Of a DNA stretch of 28,092 nt, positions 1,330-16,502 are shown piece by piece. Source of the DNA: a virus; IMG/VR virus record IMGVR_UViG_3300003323_000433, positions 1 through 28,092 of that record, one strand, 5' to 3'. Under the pieces are notes generated by a model. It was not told the origin of the DNA. It did no database searches and saw nothing but the letters and a program-made list of their open reading frames with translations. The translations under genes were made by a program, and so were the position numbers. The stretch's first letter is position 1; every line of letters starts with the position of its first letter.

Positions 1330-2076
1330 ATGAGTCTTATAAATCCTTACATTAATAAAGGCGACCAGCTTTGGAATAATGTTACGCTCTCTTTGAGTGG
1401 GCAGTCCTTTCAAGATAAAAGCAAGAATGGTGGGAATAGGGTTGCAACCGTAGTTGGAGGAGCTGCTTTATCCGCCGCCAGAACAAAATGGGGTTCTGGT
1501 AATTCTATTCGTCTGAATGCATCTACAGATTCTATCCAATTTGCCCACACTGCAAACGATTGGAATCTATCTCAGAGTGATTTCTGTTTGGAGATGTGGG
1601 CTTATTTCGATGCTCTTGTTGTTGGACAGCAGGTTATAAATCACGGAGCTTTTTCTTCTAGCCCTTTTCATAACTGGTGGATTTCTACGGGAGACCCTGG
1701 GCCTAGCCCTTCTGGGCGTAGGCTCGCATTTGCAGCTACCAATAGTGCAGGATTTACGTTCCCTAATGCCAGAGAAATGTTGACATCTGTAGATGTACTA
1801 ACTGCAGGACAATGGCAATTTATTGCATTTGGTAGAACTGGTGTCTTATTTTATATTTGGGTAGATGGAGTAAAGTATACTTATACTGACCCTGCTAACA
1901 ATGGTGCTTTGAATATGGATATTGATATTTCCAATAACTCTACTCCATTAACAATTGGTGGATTCGTTGGAAATGTGCAGGATGTGCGTTTGACAATAGG
2001 TCCAGGCAGTAACAGATATGGAAGTGCTGCTTCCTTTTCTGTACCTACTGCTCCTTTTCCTCAATATGGAAATTAA
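1330..2076 (+). CDS. LamG/concanavalin-like tail protein (248 aa)
   Basis: Residues about 45-235 follow the pattern of a laminin-G/concanavalin A-like jelly roll: a strand ending in SIRLNASTDSIQF, then FCLEMWAYFDAL, then GQWQFIAFGRTGVLFYIWVDG, then a PLTIGGFVGNVQDVRL segment near the end. In this fold the 'w.h.a..r.g....iyvdG' strand and the 'iGg....G.i.dvRi' strand are typical. Phage proteins with this domain are usually fibre or tail-tip components that may bind surface glycans; that role is inferred here. No signal peptide. It starts two bases after the previous stop and ends one base before the endolysin gene, so it is clearly co-transcribed. Confidence 0.78.
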   Translation: MSLINPYINKGDQLWNNVTLSLSGQSFQDKSKNGGNRVATVVGGAALSAARTKWGSGNSIRLNASTDSIQFAHTANDWNLSQSDFCLEMWAYFDALVVGQQVINHGAFSSSPFHNWWISTGDPGPSPSGRRLAFAATNSAGFTFPNAREMLTSVDVLTAGQWQFIAFGRTGVLFYIWVDGVKYTYTDPANNGALNMDIDISNNSTPLTIGGFVGNVQDVRLTIGPGSNRYGSAASFSVPTAPFPQYGN

Positions 2077-2077
2077 T

Positions 2078-2563
2078 ATGAACATTACTTTTGACATTGC
2101 TTTTGATAGGCTTCTTGGTAATGAAGGAGGATACGTAAATGACCCTAACGATCCTGGCGGTGAAACTAATTGGGGTATCAGCAAGCGTTCTTATCCTCAG
2201 TTGGATATTAGGAATCTTAGCAGAGACGATGCTAAAGTTATTTATAAAAGAGATTTCTGGCAAAGAATTTCAGCAGATGCTTTGCCTGGATCAGTAGCTT
2301 TCCAACTCTTTGATTTTGCAGTAAATAGTGGAATTGAAACTGCTGTTCGTGCCTTTCAAAGAAGTCTCGGTGTAGCAGATGACGGACATTGGGGCCCTAT
2401 CTCTGAGACTGCTGCTGATAAGACTTCTGAGACTGATATGATCTTTGGAGTTCTTGCAGAACGCCTTGAGTTTATGACGAAGCTTTCAAATTGGCCTAAT
2501 GCAGGGAAAGGCTGGGCTCGCAGGATAGCAGCCAATCTTCGTTACGCTAAACAAGATACTTAA
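2078..2563 (+). CDS. Endolysin, glycoside hydrolase 108 type
   Basis: The product is a peptidoglycan-degrading lysozyme-like enzyme of 161 residues, the usual size for a single-domain GH108 endolysin of Gram-negative phages. The N-terminal motif F.RLLGNEGGYVNDPNDPGGETNWGIS carries the catalytic Glu at residue 16 (EGGY) and the DPGG.TN.GIS segment typical of the family. Residues about 90-115 (FAVNSGIETAVRAFQRSLGV, then DDGHWG) match the peptidoglycan-binding part that follows in these enzymes. There is no signal peptide or N-terminal membrane anchor, so release should depend on the holin downstream. I chose ATG 2078 because GGA lies seven bases upstream; an in-frame ATG at 2066 and codons further upstream would overlap the previous gene. 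Confidence 0.92.
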   Translation: MNITFDIAFDRLLGNEGGYVNDPNDPGGETNWGISKRSYPQLDIRNLSRDDAKVIYKRDFWQRISADALPGSVAFQLFDFAVNSGIETAVRAFQRSLGVADDGHWGPISETAADKTSETDMIFGVLAERLEFMTKLSNWPNAGKGWARRIAANLRYAKQDT

Positions 2564-9073: not shown

Positions 9074-12000
9074 ATGGATAATCCCTTTAATACTACAACT
9101 CAAGCTGATGAAGTGCCTACGCAAAGTACTGATGTAAGCACCGGGAATCCTTTTGATACTCAACTCAATGACAATGTTCACCGTTATGCAGTTGATCCTA
9201 TCGGCGCAGCAGCTTCTGATGTTGTCGGCGGTGCTGTGGCTACTGTCACTGATATTGGTACTTCTTTGTGGAATTCTCTTCCTCTTACGCCAAATGTCTC
9301 CACTCAGGATGTTCTCTCACGTGTCAGCTCTGATGCGCTCAGAGTCTACAATGAAAACCCTGATACGATTAATACTCTTAGTTTTATTGGCGGCATGCTT
9401 CTTCCCATGAGTTTGGCTACTAAAGGAATGGGCGCAATGCGCGCAGGAATTAAAGGAGTCAATTGGTTCTCGGCTGCTGGCAGGGAAGCTGATCTTGCAC
9501 GAGTTGCAACTCTCTTTGATCAAGCGGCTGAATCGACTGCTGAATATCGTAATCTGACAAGAAGTATCTATGCAAAGACTGCTGTTAATCAAGCAATTGA
9601 TGCAGTAGCCGCAGAAGCTGCTTTTGTCGCCATGTATAATGCACATCCGTACATGGAAGATTATCTGAAAGACCCTGTGCAGAACTTCACATTGTCTGCT
9701 CTAATTGGCGGAGGTTTAGGAGCCGGTGTTGGCGCTATTGCAGATCGCTTTGTTCTTAAGGATATCACTGGTTCTGTAGCTGAAACTGCGTTCAATTCTG
9801 TTAATGAAGCCATGCGGGCTATTACGCCTGACATGACGAATGCAGTTAAACTACAATCCTACGATCTTAATGTAAAGAATCTGCAAGATGTAATTGATGC
9901 AAGAAAGGAACTTGGTAAAGATAAATTCAATGATTTGACCTATCAGATTGCTGATCAAGTTCAGAATTCTATCAAAGCAGAACAGGCTAAACTCTTTGAT
10001 GAAATGGTTTCTCCTGGTATCAAAGCTCTTCCTAAGGAAGAACGTGATGTTATCATGCAGAAAATTATTCAATCCCCAGAGATGTTTGGAGCGGATAATT
10101 TTAGACTCTTGACTGACAAAGAGATTACAGCTTCCGGTGTCGTTAAGCCTCCTAAGAATCAGCTCGAAGCGCAACCCTCTTTTGTAAGTAATACAAGCAG
10201 CAAAGGTCCAACTGTTCCTGTTCCTAAAGATGCTGTTTATTACCCTGAACTTGGTCTTTATGGAACTAAACAGGATGCAGTGCATTATGCAGGGGCTTCA
10301 GTTTTTGGAAAGACTAAAGAACAGCTCGCGAAGGAACTTCCCTTCAATTATGGAAAGATTCCAAACTATGATTCTAATCTTGAGTTGCTAGCAAAGGGCA
10401 GTGCTGACGCACAGGCTGAACAAATTGCAGCTTGGGAACGCGTTAAGCAGATGAGTGTCAAGGAACTATCTAAGCTTAATATCAGTGAAACTGACGCCGT
10501 TCTTCAGAATGCTGTTCTTCATCGTCTTCTGACTGACCCTGAAGCAGCAGGACTGGCTGTCAGAGTCTCCGATAATTCACCTGTCCTCAAGAAGATTATC
10601 GAAACGCATACTGAAAGGCTTGTTCAAGACGGAAAGCTTAGTGCAAGTGAAGTGGCTGCTTCTGGGCCTGACGCTGCTTACATGAACAAGGTAAGAAGTT
10701 TCACAGACGGGGACAAGATTAACACTTTCCGTCCTTCTGATCCTGATGCGTTGGACCAAATTAATCGCTGGGTTGCTGGAGGTGGTGTACAAGAACTTAG
10801 GAAAGCATCTGTAGATTATTTCGCAATTAAATATGGTGGTTATGCGAAGTCGGGTGCAAGTACTGTTGCAGCTAAAAATTTTGCTAAGCTTTATGAAGCT
10901 CCTGAATCGATTGCATTAAGAAATAAATATAGAGAACTTGCCGATGCTGGCGGGAATGTATATCTATATCGTGGCTGGAAAACAAATGATATCAAGGGGC
11001 ATGCTCCTGTAGAAAGTTATTCTGCTACCCCAGAAAAGGCTAAACAGTTCGGTCACGTTAAACTCTATAAAGTAAATGTAGATGATATCATCGCAGGTTT
11101 CAAAGACGTAGGACCTGGAGAAAATAATGCTGAGATTCTTGTAAGAGCTGGAGCAAGGCCTGTTGAAGCTCATTTGGATGCTAAAGGTCTTTTGGCTTTC
11201 AAGAAAGCGCAGCAGCAAGAAGCAGGGAAGATTACAACCACTACAACTACGACAATCAGTGCTGATTCTGCAGGAACTAGCCTTGTTGATGCTCAAGGTC
11301 TTTCTAAAATCTACATCGCAAATAAGCAAGATGCAATTGATTCTCTTCTGAATCAAGGCATGCCTATTCAAAGCATTGCACTTAAAACTAACACTGACCC
11401 CGATGTTGTTAACGCCTGGGCTCATGCAAGGCAGAATGTAGATTCCTTGGAATCTCTCATTCCTCCGAATCAAAGTCCTATTTCTTTCCTTAACAAAATC
11501 AAGAGCTACGATGACATTGACAATGTCTTGAAAAGCAGCAATCAGCCTATCGTAATGAGCGGTAATCTCCGGAAGAATGCTGCTTATGTTGACAATCACG
11601 TTGCTCTTGACAAGCATGAGATGAGGAGTTTGAATAGAGAATTCCTTTATAGGACTATGCTCAGTTCAAACAACAGTGCAGTGCAAGCGATGGCTGATGC
11701 TTTTTACTCACCTGAAGGCTTCGGCCCAGCTCTTGATGTAATCGCCGCAAAACTTGGTAAAGTGAATAATGAGCTTGCTGGCAATGGGTTTATCAATTCC
11801 TTTGACTTTTTCGCCAGGAACATGGCTGAAGTCGGTCCTGCCACATCAGCTATTGGAAAACAGATTCAAAACATTGCGAACGGATACATCAAGCAAGTTG
11901 TAGCTCCTATCGAGAATGCAATGGTAGCAGTTCAGAAGGACCCTGCTGCGCTTGTCGAATTCTCAGTCTTTCATAATCTTAACGCTTCTTTGAAAGGTTG

Positions 12001-14491
12001 GAGAGGTTTTGATAAAGATGGCTATCTTGTTCAGAAAGTAGAGAAGCAACTCGAAGATGGAACTACTGGGCAAGTCCTTGAGCGAGTTAAATATCAAGGT
12101 AATGATTACAAAGTTGTTACCCAAGAAGCAAGGGACTTGATCCAAGCAATTCAGGATCAATCTGCAGGACTTCGTGATCTTTCTAACACACTAAGAAAAG
12201 CAACTGGTGCACCTGATATTTCTGATATCGGTCTGTGGATTCCTTCGTTTAATCCTGTAGATAAGTTCATTGCTTATGTACATGATACTGTCACAGATAC
12301 AACGAAACTCCTTTGGGGTAAGACAGAGGCTGAACTCGATAATTCTGTAAAAGCTTATCACGGTTATCTAAAAGAGACTGGACAAGCTGATACGGTCAGA
12401 ATCATTAGCAATAAAACTGAACAAGCTAACTGGAATATTCTAAATGGACGACTTGACCCTATCAACATGGAACGAGCCGATATCGGCTTACAGAAGACTG
12501 GTTCAAGCGCAGCTGCAATTGTTAAGCCTGACATTAAGCTTCTGGGAGAGATCGCTGCTGGCTATGAACACTACATTACTGCGCAAGTAAGGAATCTCGC
12601 CGACATTAATATGCATGAGATTACTGAGGGACTTCAAAGAATCTCAGCCTACAATAAGAGGAACTTCACCAGCCAACCTCTTAGTGATGTTAAGAAAGCT
12701 ATCCAGCAACCGAAAGATGCTGCGGCAATTATGCGCAATGTCTTGCTCGGTTCTCCCAATCTAGGAGAATACGCAGGATGGCAGTGGCTTAATAAAGGAT
12801 TTGAAACAACCATTGCTGTCGCTGTAAATTCTCTTAACCAAGTTTGGAATTCCACTGTTAAACCTATCACCAAAGGAATCTTTGGAGGAAAGAAGGAACT
12901 TGATCTTGCAGGGATTAAGAAGATTGACTTTGAAGAATTTACGAAAGAACTTAATTCCAGAGGAATTCAGCATCCTTTCCAGGATTTCGATAGGGCTGCT
13001 GCAGAGAAACTAGGATTCTTCAATCTCGAAGCAAATCCTGATACTTCCAAGCGAGTGATCTTTGCTTCCAATGCTCTCGCTGCAACTATGGCTTTGCGCT
13101 TTGCAGAACTTGCTCAGCCTCTTGTGAACGCAATGTCCTTGCCTATTCTTACCGGGCTGGCAATTGCACAGAAAATGCCTGACACTTTTATGGGAGTACA
13201 AAAAGCTACTACAAAAGCTTGGCCTTCACAAATTATGTATGAAGGCGTCAGGGCTATGCATTCTCCTATGTTTGCTGATCTGAATACTAAATGGGAGAAA
13301 CTCGGTTATTTCTCTCCTATGGTGTCGGAAGCTACGAACGTGATGAGGGCAACTAGGAGATTTGAACCTGGGCTTATCTCTAAGGTGGAGAATGCTCTCG
13401 ATAGCAATATTGTAAAGACAATGAGCAAGCCTTCAGACTATGCAGAATCTCTTACTAGAAAAGCTGCAATGAATACTGGGGCTGTGCTTGCCAAGCGGCT
13501 TTATCCTGAACTCGATGATGCAGGAATTACCATCTTTGCTCGTGATTTCATGGATAAAGCTATCGGTAATTTCCATGCGTCTCAGCGTCCAGTGATGTTC
13601 CAAGGAACGCTTGGTGTTGGCCTAGGTCTCTTTCAGACGTACATGCTAACCCTTGCGCAATCTGTATACAGGCATCTTGAGCTAAAGAATTACAAAGCTC
13701 TCGGAAAAGCAATGCTTGCTCAGAGTACCTTGTTCGGTGCTAAGAGCATGCCTGGATTCAATTTTGTATCAGAAGCTATTGGCGATCATTTCTCAGATGA
13801 TAATGTTGATCTCACTACTGGAACTTACAGAGCGCTGCCTAACAAATTAGCTGATCTTACTCTGTATGGACTTCCAAGTAATCTCGGCCCTAGCTTTACT
13901 TCACGTGGAGGAGTAGACTTCAGGCCTCCTAATTTCACTGCATTGCAATTCCTTGCGCAAACTTATGGTCTGTTGGATAATACTTATAAGGCAGTGAAAC
14001 TTGAGAACGAGAATGTCGGCAGGGCTTTCTTACAAGCTCTCTCACTTCAAAGTATGAGCCGTCCTCTAGCAAGAACTTCTGAACTTGCAACTGGATATTC
14101 TCTTACACAGAAAGGAGATACCGTCCAAATTCCTGAAGAGGTGTGGAGCTATCAGGGTGTTGCTGCGAGATTATTAGCAACGCGGCCTGTAGAGGAACAA
14201 AAATTGCGCGATGAGATGCATCTGAATAGTTTCTATGGAGCTCTTGACAGAGATCATCGTGAAGAAGTGATGAACAAAGTAAGGACTGCTATTCGTTCAG
14301 GCACTTTGGATGATTCAAAGCTTAGCACTTATGCAGAAGAATACTTCAGGAAAGGCGGAAGTCCTAGTGGATGGAGAAGTGCAATTAATAGCGCAGTAGC
14401 TAGAACGGATGCGCCTGGACAGGATGCTCTAATTCAGAAACTGCGCCCAGACAATCCTGTCAATTTTATGATTGATTCTCTGGAGAGATAG
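9074..14491 (+). CDS. Giant internal/ejection protein with ADP-ribosyltransferase-like domain (1805 aa)
   Basis: At 1805 residues this is the largest gene and the last of the plus-strand block. Ala/Gly-rich segments (about 40-130 and 200-230) may interact with membranes. Residues about 560-705 look like an ADP-ribosyltransferase fold: helices, then VYLYRGW with Arg633, then ESYSATPEKAKQFG with Ser648/Ser650, then NNAEILV with Glu687. This is the R-S-E order of the family; the residue two before Glu687 is Asn, not Glu or Gln. A seven-Thr stretch (721-727) follows as a linker. The C-terminal region contains ASQRPVMFQGTLGVGLGLFQ followed by TYMLTLAQ, a pattern I know from very large virion proteins of other podoviruses. 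No lytic transglycosylase motif was seen. GAGGAATAAT precedes the start. The protein probably enters the host with the DNA, and the enzyme domain could then modify a host target; both points are inference. Confidence 0.75.
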   Translation: MDNPFNTTTQADEVPTQSTDVSTGNPFDTQLNDNVHRYAVDPIGAAASDVVGGAVATVTDIGTSLWNSLPLTPNVSTQDVLSRVSSDALRVYNENPDTINTLSFIGGMLLPMSLATKGMGAMRAGIKGVNWFSAAGREADLARVATLFDQAAESTAEYRNLTRSIYAKTAVNQAIDAVAAEAAFVAMYNAHPYMEDYLKDPVQNFTLSALIGGGLGAGVGAIADRFVLKDITGSVAETAFNSVNEAMRAITPDMTNAVKLQSYDLNVKNLQDVIDARKELGKDKFNDLTYQIADQVQNSIKAEQAKLFDEMVSPGIKALPKEERDVIMQKIIQSPEMFGADNFRLLTDKEITASGVVKPPKNQLEAQPSFVSNTSSKGPTVPVPKDAVYYPELGLYGTKQDAVHYAGASVFGKTKEQLAKELPFNYGKIPNYDSNLELLAKGSADAQAEQIAAWERVKQMSVKELSKLNISETDAVLQNAVLHRLLTDPEAAGLAVRVSDNSPVLKKIIETHTERLVQDGKLSASEVAASGPDAAYMNKVRSFTDGDKINTFRPSDPDALDQINRWVAGGGVQELRKASVDYFAIKYGGYAKSGASTVAAKNFAKLYEAPESIALRNKYRELADAGGNVYLYRGWKTNDIKGHAPVESYSATPEKAKQFGHVKLYKVNVDDIIAGFKDVGPGENNAEILVRAGARPVEAHLDAKGLLAFKKAQQQEAGKITTTTTTTISADSAGTSLVDAQGLSKIYIANKQDAIDSLLNQGMPIQSIALKTNTDPDVVNAWAHARQNVDSLESLIPPNQSPISFLNKIKSYDDIDNVLKSSNQPIVMSGNLRKNAAYVDNHVALDKHEMRSLNREFLYRTMLSSNNSAVQAMADAFYSPEGFGPALDVIAAKLGKVNNELAGNGFINSFDFFARNMAEVGPATSAIGKQIQNIANGYIKQVVAPIENAMVAVQKDPAALVEFSVFHNLNASLKGWRGFDKDGYLVQKVEKQLEDGTTGQVLERVKYQGNDYKVVTQEARDLIQAIQDQSAGLRDLSNTLRKATGAPDISDIGLWIPSFNPVDKFIAYVHDTVTDTTKLLWGKTEAELDNSVKAYHGYLKETGQADTVRIISNKTEQANWNILNGRLDPINMERADIGLQKTGSSAAAIVKPDIKLLGEIAAGYEHYITAQVRNLADINMHEITEGLQRISAYNKRNFTSQPLSDVKKAIQQPKDAAAIMRNVLLGSPNLGEYAGWQWLNKGFETTIAVAVNSLNQVWNSTVKPITKGIFGGKKELDLAGIKKIDFEEFTKELNSRGIQHPFQDFDRAAAEKLGFFNLEANPDTSKRVIFASNALAATMALRFAELAQPLVNAMSLPILTGLAIAQKMPDTFMGVQKATTKAWPSQIMYEGVRAMHSPMFADLNTKWEKLGYFSPMVSEATNVMRATRRFEPGLISKVENALDSNIVKTMSKPSDYAESLTRKAAMNTGAVLAKRLYPELDDAGITIFARDFMDKAIGNFHASQRPVMFQGTLGVGLGLFQTYMLTLAQSVYRHLELKNYKALGKAMLAQSTLFGAKSMPGFNFVSEAIGDHFSDDNVDLTTGTYRALPNKLADLTLYGLPSNLGPSFTSRGGVDFRPPNFTALQFLAQTYGLLDNTYKAVKLENENVGRAFLQALSLQSMSRPLARTSELATGYSLTQKGDTVQIPEEVWSYQGVAARLLATRPVEEQKLRDEMHLNSFYGALDRDHREEVMNKVRTAIRSGTLDDSKLSTYAEEYFRKGGSPSGWRSAINSAVARTDAPGQDALIQKLRPDNPVNFMIDSLER

Positions 14492-15222: not shown

Positions 15223-15510
15223 TTACCTCTTAAAGATAGAAGGATCAGGGGTCAAACCAAATAACTCAATGTGCGCTTTAGTAAGCGCGAATCTATCTTT
15301 AGCCACCTCCTGAAAACTAACTGTCTTCTGCATGAAGCCTAGAATCCAAAACTCCCACCGAAGACCAATATTATTTTGTCTAACTCCCGTGAATTCAATC
15401 TTCTCCAGTTCCGCAACATCCATGAAATCTGGATGATTAGGGCGCTTAAAAGATTCTGTTTGTTGCTTTCCCGGAGAGACAATAATTGGATTGTTCTTTG
15501 CGTCAGTCAT
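15223..15510 (-). CDS. Hypothetical protein (95 aa)
   Basis: The 95-residue product has an unstructured first third (NNPIIVSPGKQQTESFKRPNHP) and a more ordered part containing LRWEFWILGF and two short helices. There is no membrane segment of full length and no motif I recognise. Its start overlaps the stop of the DHH phosphoesterase gene as ATGA, so the two are likely translationally coupled. A role as an accessory to that enzyme is possible, but only position suggests it. Confidence 0.6.
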   Translation of the reverse strand: MTDAKNNPIIVSPGKQQTESFKRPNHPDFMDVAELEKIEFTGVRQNNIGLRWEFWILGFMQKTVSFQEVAKDRFALTKAHIELFGLTPDPSIFKR

Positions 15511-16502
15511 CAGAACCTCGCCAATTCATGATCTCGGGGAACAGAGAATCCTGCAGCATGCTTATGGCCGCCACCTCCAAAGAGCTTAGCAATCTCTGAG
15601 ACATCAGGACCGCCTTCGATACTGCGCAAGCTAAAGATTCGCTTTTCAGCAGTATCGTAGTAGGTAACAGCTGCCATGCCAGCAACTTCAGTAGCCATGA
15701 TATGGCCCGCATCCGAAGTCCACATATAAGGACAATTCAAGCAAGGCATGATCCAAAACACGGCTGAATCTTGTGGATGTTCAATGATAATTTGACGCTT
15801 AGCGACTTTTATAAGTTCCCTGATATCCTTGAAGTGCTTTCGCTCGATAGCCATTCCACCTTCTGCCAGTTGCAGAGTAGAAGTCTCAAGCATCAGTTTG
15901 TCCCAATTCTCGAAAGTGTATTCATAACTAAAAACATTAGCCTGAATCTCACGAGTAAGAGCCAGCTTAAATTTCCAAAGATCGCGATCTTGAATATGAC
16001 CTAGGAGAGTAGGAGGCGAAAAATAATCAAAATCAGTTGGTTTGATGTCAAGAATCAAGCAAATTTTGTTATCTTCAGGATACTCCCAACGTGTGTTGAA
16101 AAGAAAATCCCAAGCAAGCATTGCTCCACTACGTTCAAGGTCTGTGTAAGCGATAAATTTCTTGTGTTCTTTAAGAGGCCCAAGATCTTCAATTGCGGTC
16201 TTATGATGATCGATGAGATAAATACCTCGACTTCTCTCAAGCATCTGTTCAACAATCTCGCGCTTGTAAGAGAAGTCAACAAGATAGATAATCCTGTCAT
16301 CGATATCTACTGAACCATTCAGGATATCTTCCCCATAAACTCCGGGATGATAATCATAGGCAATTTCTGTTCTATTTTCCGAATGATGAAAACACCATGC
16401 AGCAGAGAATCCATCTGCGCAATTACCATGATAGATAACCAGAGGGCGCTTGTATTGAGAGAGTTCAAGATTATTGCCATTAAAGAGATTTTCAAGACTC
16501 AT
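15510..16502 (-). CDS. DHH-family phosphoesterase
   Basis: The 330-residue protein has the full layout of a DHH/DHHA1 enzyme. Near the N-terminus VIYHGNCADGFSAAW carries the first metal-binding set (His25, Asn27, Asp30), VDFS gives Asp76, and YLIDHHKT gives the signature Asp98-His99-His100. The C-terminal GGGGHKHAAGF (309-319) is the DHHA1 substrate-binding loop. Family members are Mn-dependent phosphodiesterases such as RecJ exonuclease, nano-RNases and cyclic-dinucleotide hydrolases. The length and lack of extra domains are closer to the small oligonucleotide or cyclic-dinucleotide hydrolases than to RecJ. In this operon it could degrade short oligonucleotides or a host signal nucleotide. 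AGGAGCAAATA precedes the ATG. Confidence 0.9.
   Translation of the reverse strand: MSLENLFNGNNLELSQYKRPLVIYHGNCADGFSAAWCFHHSENRTEIAYDYHPGVYGEDILNGSVDIDDRIIYLVDFSYKREIVEQMLERSRGIYLIDHHKTAIEDLGPLKEHKKFIAYTDLERSGAMLAWDFLFNTRWEYPEDNKICLILDIKPTDFDYFSPPTLLGHIQDRDLWKFKLALTREIQANVFSYEYTFENWDKLMLETSTLQLAEGGMAIERKHFKDIRELIKVAKRQIIIEHPQDSAVFWIMPCLNCPYMWTSDAGHIMATEVAGMAAVTYYDTAEKRIFSLRSIEGGPDVSEIAKLFGGGGHKHAAGFSVPRDHELARF

What the first reader, a model, noticed from the sequence alone, without database searches (positions are those of the whole stretch)
10740..11190. ADP-ribosyltransferase-like domain inside a giant injected virion protein
Residues about 560-705 of the 1805-residue protein show the ART order: YRG (Arg633), a S-x-S segment ESYSATP (Ser648/650), then Glu687 in NNAEILV, followed by a Thr-only linker. 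Known: T4 Alt is an injected ADP-ribosyltransferase, and ART domains occur in phage 'polyvalent' proteins that travel with the DNA. Inference: this podovirus carries a host-modifying enzyme within its ejection protein. The residue two before Glu687 is Asn, so the usual Glu/Gln-x-Glu is altered and the activity or target may differ.
Basis: partly seen in the sequence, partly recalled or inferred. Interest (0 to 1): 0.85.

Follow-up and report, generated by a model that had tools for sequence, protein, structure and literature searches.

The report
ADP-ribosyltransferase cargo in podovirus structural protein
A giant structural protein of a short-tailed bacteriophage carries, as a removable middle segment, what looks like an enzyme that would attach ADP-ribose to bacterial molecules at the start of infection; the same kind of segment comes and goes across the whole virus family and, as far as the records and papers read here show, had not been recognised in it.

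Summary
The 1805-aa ORF at 9074-14491 contains R633, S648 and E687 as described. No Pfam model recognises the region, but four other tests point to an ADP-ribosyltransferase (ART) domain of the R-S-E type. (1) In 23 diverged copies R633 and E687 are invariant and S648 is kept in 22; they are among the seven most conserved columns. (2) The AlphaFold2 model puts R, S and E on strands in ART order. (3) Its best solved-structure matches are nearly all R-S-E ARTs, at modest scores. (4) The family profile aligns with T4 ModA/ModB ARTs, R and S in register, far above 200 shuffles. The ART block is absent from close relatives that keep the flanks, and the tree needs seven gains or losses, so it is an optional module, not structural core. 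Position -2 from the Glu is Glu in 11 copies, Asn in 9 (this window included), Lys, Thr or Ala in 3. Injection and catalysis are inferred, not shown: no homology to T7 gp16 was detected and the C-terminal model was uninformative. New variant of a known kind (virion-borne phage ARTs such as T4 Alt).

The parts
9074..14491 (+). 1805-aa virion (probable internal/ejection) protein, PHROG 16165 family
   Evidence: ORF; PHROG 16165 E 7.7e-224; homologues in Tiera, EBPR podovirus 3 and Fredfastierviridae phages, annotated 'structural protein' in PaMx41
10751..11188 (+). ART-like domain, residues 560-705
   Evidence: alignments A3/A4/A7, AF2 model, Foldseek, hhalign to T4 Mod ARTs
10970..10972 (+). 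Arg633, predicted NAD-binding Arg on strand 1
   Evidence: invariant in 23/23 copies; strand 88-95 of the model
11015..11017 (+). Ser648, predicted Ser of the S-x-S/T strand
   Evidence: 22/23 copies; strand 106-110 of the model
11126..11128 (+). Asn685, position -2 of the predicted catalytic Glu (Glu in 11 of 23 copies)
11132..11134 (+). Glu687, predicted catalytic Glu on strand 5
   Evidence: invariant in 23/23 copies; strand 146-151 of the model
10604..11228 (+). approximate extent of the block missing from ART-less relatives (residues about 511-718)
   Evidence: alignment with L032, L035 and L034; also L010, L011, L012, L017
11318..11428 (+). conserved segment just after the ART slot, helix-turn-helix-like, kept in ART-less relatives
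   Evidence: weak HTH_7 match in L065

Best explanation
Residues about 560-705 are an ART domain of the R-S-E clade carried as an optional cargo module in a giant virion protein of a Fredfastierviridae-related podovirus. Most likely the protein is packaged inside the head and ejected with the genome. The ART then binds NAD+ through Arg633 and Ser648, uses Glu687 as the catalytic residue, and modifies one or more host molecules in the first moments of infection, as T4 Alt does. Shown here: the motif, its conservation, its profile similarity to T4 ModA/ModB, an ART-like predicted fold, and the presence or absence of the block across the family. Inferred: packaging, ejection, catalysis and a host target.
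For: R633 and E687 invariant and S648 22/23 over 23 diverged copies. The AF2 model (pLDDT 78, pTM 0.75) has strands holding R, S and E in ART order after an N-terminal helical part. Nearly all of the top 13 PDB matches are R-S-E ARTs (ExoS E 5.7e-3 prob 0.94, ART2.2, ExoT, a Listeria ART effector, C3 enzymes); viral-library matches include annotated ADP-ribosyltransferases. hhalign of 23 copies against 8 T4 Mod-family ARTs: score 32.9, P 2e-4, LYRG and SYT/SFT in register; best of 200 column shuffles 20.0, reversed 9.6. The block is cleanly missing in L032/L035, which are 79-82% identical to ART-bearing L034; presence/absence needs 7 changes on the tree, so the domain is not part of the structural core. 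dN/dS in the ART is well below 1 in diverged pairs, including Asn-x-Glu pair L038/L056 at about 0.13, so it is maintained.
Against: No significant Pfam, NCBIfam or PDB-sequence match. Foldseek TM-scores are low (0.2-0.4) and no PDB match reaches E 0.001. The Glu/Gln at -2 expected for transfer to protein side chains is Asn here. Virion location rests on gene position and on annotation of relatives; homology to T7 gp16 was not found and the C-terminal half gave no usable structural match. The pocket geometry could not be inspected.
Confidence: 0.7

Rival explanations
1. The domain is an ART, but in the Asn/Lys/Thr/Ala-x-Glu lineages, including this window, it no longer transfers ADP-ribose to a protein side chain: it only hydrolyses NAD+, or it modifies a different acceptor such as a nucleic acid or a small molecule.
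For: Position -2 is not Glu/Gln in 12 of 23 copies, while R and E stay invariant; the Glu/non-Glu split needs at least 3 changes on the tree and Asn occurs in separate clades; Asn-x-Glu pair L038/L056 shows dN/dS about 0.13.
Against: No direct evidence on acceptor or activity; Asn at -2 could still position an acceptor. E-x-E is kept in half of the family.
Confidence: 0.3
2. The domain is a degenerate ART kept only as a structural or binding module (a pseudoenzyme) in the virion protein.
For: Loss of the -2 Glu in half of the copies; faster evolution than the rest of the protein in most pairs; excess non-synonymous changes in the L050/L051/L064/L071 set.
Against: R and E are invariant and S nearly so in 23 copies, unlike decay; the non-synonymous changes avoid these residues; relatives do without the block altogether, so it is not needed for structure.
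Confidence: 0.15
3. The giant protein is not ejected: it is a tail or head structural protein and the ART acts elsewhere, for example during assembly or late in infection.
For: No homology to T7 gp16; annotation of relatives only says 'structural protein'.
Against: Last of a 978/300/574/1805-aa series in the structural gene cluster, which resembles in order the gp14-gp15-gp16 internal proteins of T7 (resemblance only); hydrophobic glycine-rich N-terminal segments.
Confidence: 0.2
4. The motif is a chance resemblance within an ordinary structural domain.
For: No curated family matches; low TM-scores.
Against: Independent agreement of conservation, fold search and profile comparison with T4 Mod ARTs in the right register.
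Confidence: 0.05

Closest known systems
T4 ModA/ModB and Alt (R-S-E ARTs of T4-like phages)
   Same: R-S-E signature with profile-level similarity to ModA/ModB, R and S in register; Alt is carried in the virion and injected (PMC9503650, PMC5512222)
   Different: Here the ART is an internal, optional block of a podovirus structural protein of about 1800 aa, not a free-standing protein; half the copies lack the -2 Glu; Alt itself was not compared
ARTs of phage polyvalent proteins (Tox-ART-HYD2-like, N4-type)
   Same: ART domain within a very large virion-associated protein
R-S-E bacterial and vertebrate ARTs (ExoS, C3 enzymes, ART2.2)
   Same: Best structural neighbours of the model
   Different: No sequence-level match; low TM-scores; different context
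T7 gp16 internal virion (ejection) protein
   Same: Position as last and largest of a series of structural proteins; T7 gp16 also carries a phage-specific enzymatic domain (PMC8954989)
   Different: No detectable homology; the enzyme here is an ART, not a transglycosylase
PHROG 16165 / PaP2-119X-PaMx41 giant protein (Fredfastierviridae)
   Same: Full-length homologues, ART included
   Different: Recorded as hypothetical or structural protein, in one record as a peptidoglycan transglycosylase; the ART is not named in the records or papers read here

Membership tests
ART superfamily, R-S-E clade | Arg on strand 1 | tested here: met
   R633, 23/23 copies, on model strand 88-95
ART superfamily, R-S-E clade | Ser of the S-x-S/T motif on strand 2 | tested here: met
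   S648 22/23, on model strand 106-110; the third position of the motif varies (S/T/A)
ART superfamily, R-S-E clade | catalytic Glu on strand 5 | tested here: met
   E687 23/23, on model strand 146-151
ART superfamily, R-S-E clade | Glu or Gln two residues before the catalytic Glu (feature of many side-chain-modifying members, not of every ART) | tested here: not met
   Asn685 in the window; Glu in 11, Asn in 9, Lys/Thr/Ala in 3 of 23 copies. It limits the claim on activity rather than on fold
ART superfamily, R-S-E clade | ART fold (split beta-sheet core) | tested here: inconclusive
   Top PDB matches are almost all ARTs, best E 5.7e-3, prob 0.94, but TM 0.2-0.4; strand order fits; coordinates not inspected
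ART superfamily, R-S-E clade | sequence-profile similarity to a characterised member | tested here: met
   hhalign to T4 ModA/ModB family, P 2e-4, above 200 shuffles; covers 42 columns around R and S, not E
ART superfamily, R-S-E clade | NAD+ binding and ADP-ribosyl transfer | not testable with these tools
   needs biochemistry
Pfam ART models (PF03496 and others) | match at the curated cut-off | tested here: not met
   no ART model reaches its cut-off; best is DRAT E 0.019 in one relative
Polyvalent-protein ART (H-Y-D) | His/Tyr/Asp active site | tested here: not met
   R-S-E residues instead (definition from PMC5512222)
Injected virion ART (T4 Alt-like) | packaged and injected with the DNA | not testable with these tools
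   only indirect: structural-gene position and annotation
T7 gp16-type ejection protein | homology to T7 gp16 | tested here: not met
   hhalign P 0.57 against the T7 gp16 sequence alone
Fredfastierviridae-type giant structural protein (PHROG 16165) | full-length homology and same gene position | tested here: met

The most novel reading that the evidence does not exclude
The giant virion protein of these podoviruses is a carrier with slots for interchangeable early effectors: an R-S-E ART in a downstream slot in most lineages, a zincin-type metallopeptidase in an upstream region in others, neither in others. The repeated change of Glu to Asn at -2 marks ARTs with a new acceptor or a pure NADase activity.
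Probability: 0.35. Interest if true: 0.75.

Novelty: new variant of a known kind. Interest (0 to 1): 0.55.

Why it matters
[quoted passage not shown] If this holds, a podovirus group that includes cultured Pseudomonas phages (119X, PaP2, PaMx41) carries an unrecognised ART in a structural protein, with natural ART-less relatives and two active-site variants for comparison. That makes early host takeover by a podovirus testable in a laboratory system.

Tried and rejected
Pfam, NCBIfam and PHROG scans of the protein and of the domain copies gave no ART family at cut-off. Sequence search of the PDB, single and profile, gave only chance matches. The C-terminal half (residues 890-1805) was modelled to test an ejection-protein fold: pLDDT 61 and no meaningful match. 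T7 gp16 comparison negative. A scan of genome contigs with the domain profile could not be run (alignment not conserved enough). The first viral-contig scan with the single protein found nothing. Virion mass spectrometry for this phage group was not found in the held literature. The antisense ORF at 10964-11617 was not taken as a gene.

Full report
The window is a 28,092-base virus record with structural genes on the + strand up to about 14.5 kb and mainly replication genes on the - strand beyond. The ORF at 9074-14491 encodes 1805 aa. It belongs to PHROG 16165, unknown function, E 7.7e-224, and has full-length homologues in Polaromonas phage Tiera (44%), EBPR podovirus 3 (33%) and the Pseudomonas phages 119X, PaP2, PaMx41 and Ph_15 (about 32%), the last group being Jamesmcgillvirus, Fredfastierviridae. 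The gene is the last of a series of 978, 300, 574 and 1805 aa, with the same order in Tiera and PaMx41.

R633, S648 and E687 are invariant among the first four homologues. Further viral-contig scans brought in many more relatives. In 23 copies less than 90% identical, R633 and E687 are invariant and S648 is kept in 22. At the residue two before the Glu, 11 copies have Glu, 9 have Asn including the window and Tiera, and three have Lys, Thr or Ala.

AlphaFold2 on residues 541-717 with 11 sequences gave pLDDT 78 and pTM 0.75, with R633, S648 and E687 each on a strand in ART order after a helical N-terminal part. The best PDB matches are almost all R-S-E ARTs, best E 5.7e-3 with probability 0.94, but with low TM-scores. 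In the viral library the two best matches carry no name, and named ADP-ribosyltransferases appear among the following ones. Profile-profile comparison of 23 domain copies with eight T4 Mod-family ARTs gave score 32.9 and P 2e-4 over 42 columns, with LYRG and SYT/SFT in register; the best of 200 column-shuffled controls scored 20.0 and the reversed profile 9.6. Curated family libraries give no ART match at cut-off. Together I take the domain to be an ART of the R-S-E clade; the fold is the least secure part because coordinates could not be inspected.

The block is optional. L032 and L035 lack it but are 79-82% identical to ART-bearing L034 and keep the flanks, including a helix-turn-helix-like segment. 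L010, L011, L012 and L017 lack it too. On a tree of the C-terminal region, ART presence needs 7 changes, and Glu versus other at -2 needs 3 among ART-bearing rows, so Asn at that place is unlikely to be a single event. Between diverged pairs the ART evolves faster than the rest in most cases but with dN/dS well below 1, about 0.13 in the Asn-x-Glu pair L038/L056. In the near-identical set L050, L051, L064, L071 the ART has a higher ratio of non-synonymous to synonymous changes than the rest in four of six comparisons (Fisher p 0.0007-0.016; the comparisons share sequences and were not corrected), none at the three key residues. That may be diversifying selection or relaxed constraint.

Delivery is inferred. 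ORF20-23 of PaMx41 are annotated 'structural protein', but the basis of that annotation was not seen, since the paper is not held. T7 gp16 shows no detectable homology, and the model of the C-terminal half was of low confidence without useful matches.

In the literature, ARTs packaged in virions are known and are much more frequent in myoviruses than in podoviruses (PMC9503650). ARTs of polyvalent proteins are of the H-Y-D type, and the R-S-E Alt/VIP2 family is said not to occur in genuine polyvalent proteins (PMC5512222). A review of ejection proteins describes swapping of an enzymatic domain, the transglycosylase, between T7-type proteins; a search of it for ADP-ribosylation found nothing (PMC8954989). 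I found no report of an ART in the Fredfastierviridae protein in the held library, which holds open-access papers only.

Verdict: a new variant of a known kind, well supported as an ART domain, moderately supported as an early effector, with the N-x-E form and the slot idea as the open questions.

Noticed in passing
L074 (gene at 2643), L073 (gene at 1566), L005 (Aeromonas phage P5 gene at 4164): ART-less relatives carry a zincin-like HExxH...ExxAD motif in the middle region: RHEVGH/ELLADAYA in L074 (Pfam Peptidase_M48 above its cut-off, E 1.1e-4), AHELGH/ELIADGVA in L073, YHEKGH/ELWADAFA in P5 (no family match in the last two). It seems to lie upstream of the ART position. Possibly another cargo.
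   Followed up: partly
window 11318-11428: Segment after the ART slot with a helix-turn-helix-like pattern, kept in ART-less relatives; one relative (L065) has a weak HTH_7 match (E 0.086).
   Followed up: no
L038, ORFs starting at 2146 and 5153: The homologous gene appears split into ORFs of 994 and 782 aa in this contig, with the ART in the first: frameshift, assembly error or a real split.
   Followed up: no
L050, L051, L064, L071: Near-identical contigs with an excess of non-synonymous changes in the ART relative to the rest: recent diversification or relaxed constraint.
   Followed up: partly
window 2018-2563: Glycosyl hydrolase 108 (endolysin-type), E 2.7e-27.
   Followed up: no
window 1330-2076: Concanavalin A-like lectin (Laminin_G_3) match, E 1.4e-4 but below cut-off; possibly a tail or receptor-binding part.
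   Followed up: no
window 15510-16502 (-): DHH phosphoesterase next to the structural cluster (PHROG 4771 E 1.2e-86; DHHA1), matching the 'putative phosphohydrolase' of Tiera in the same position.
   Followed up: no
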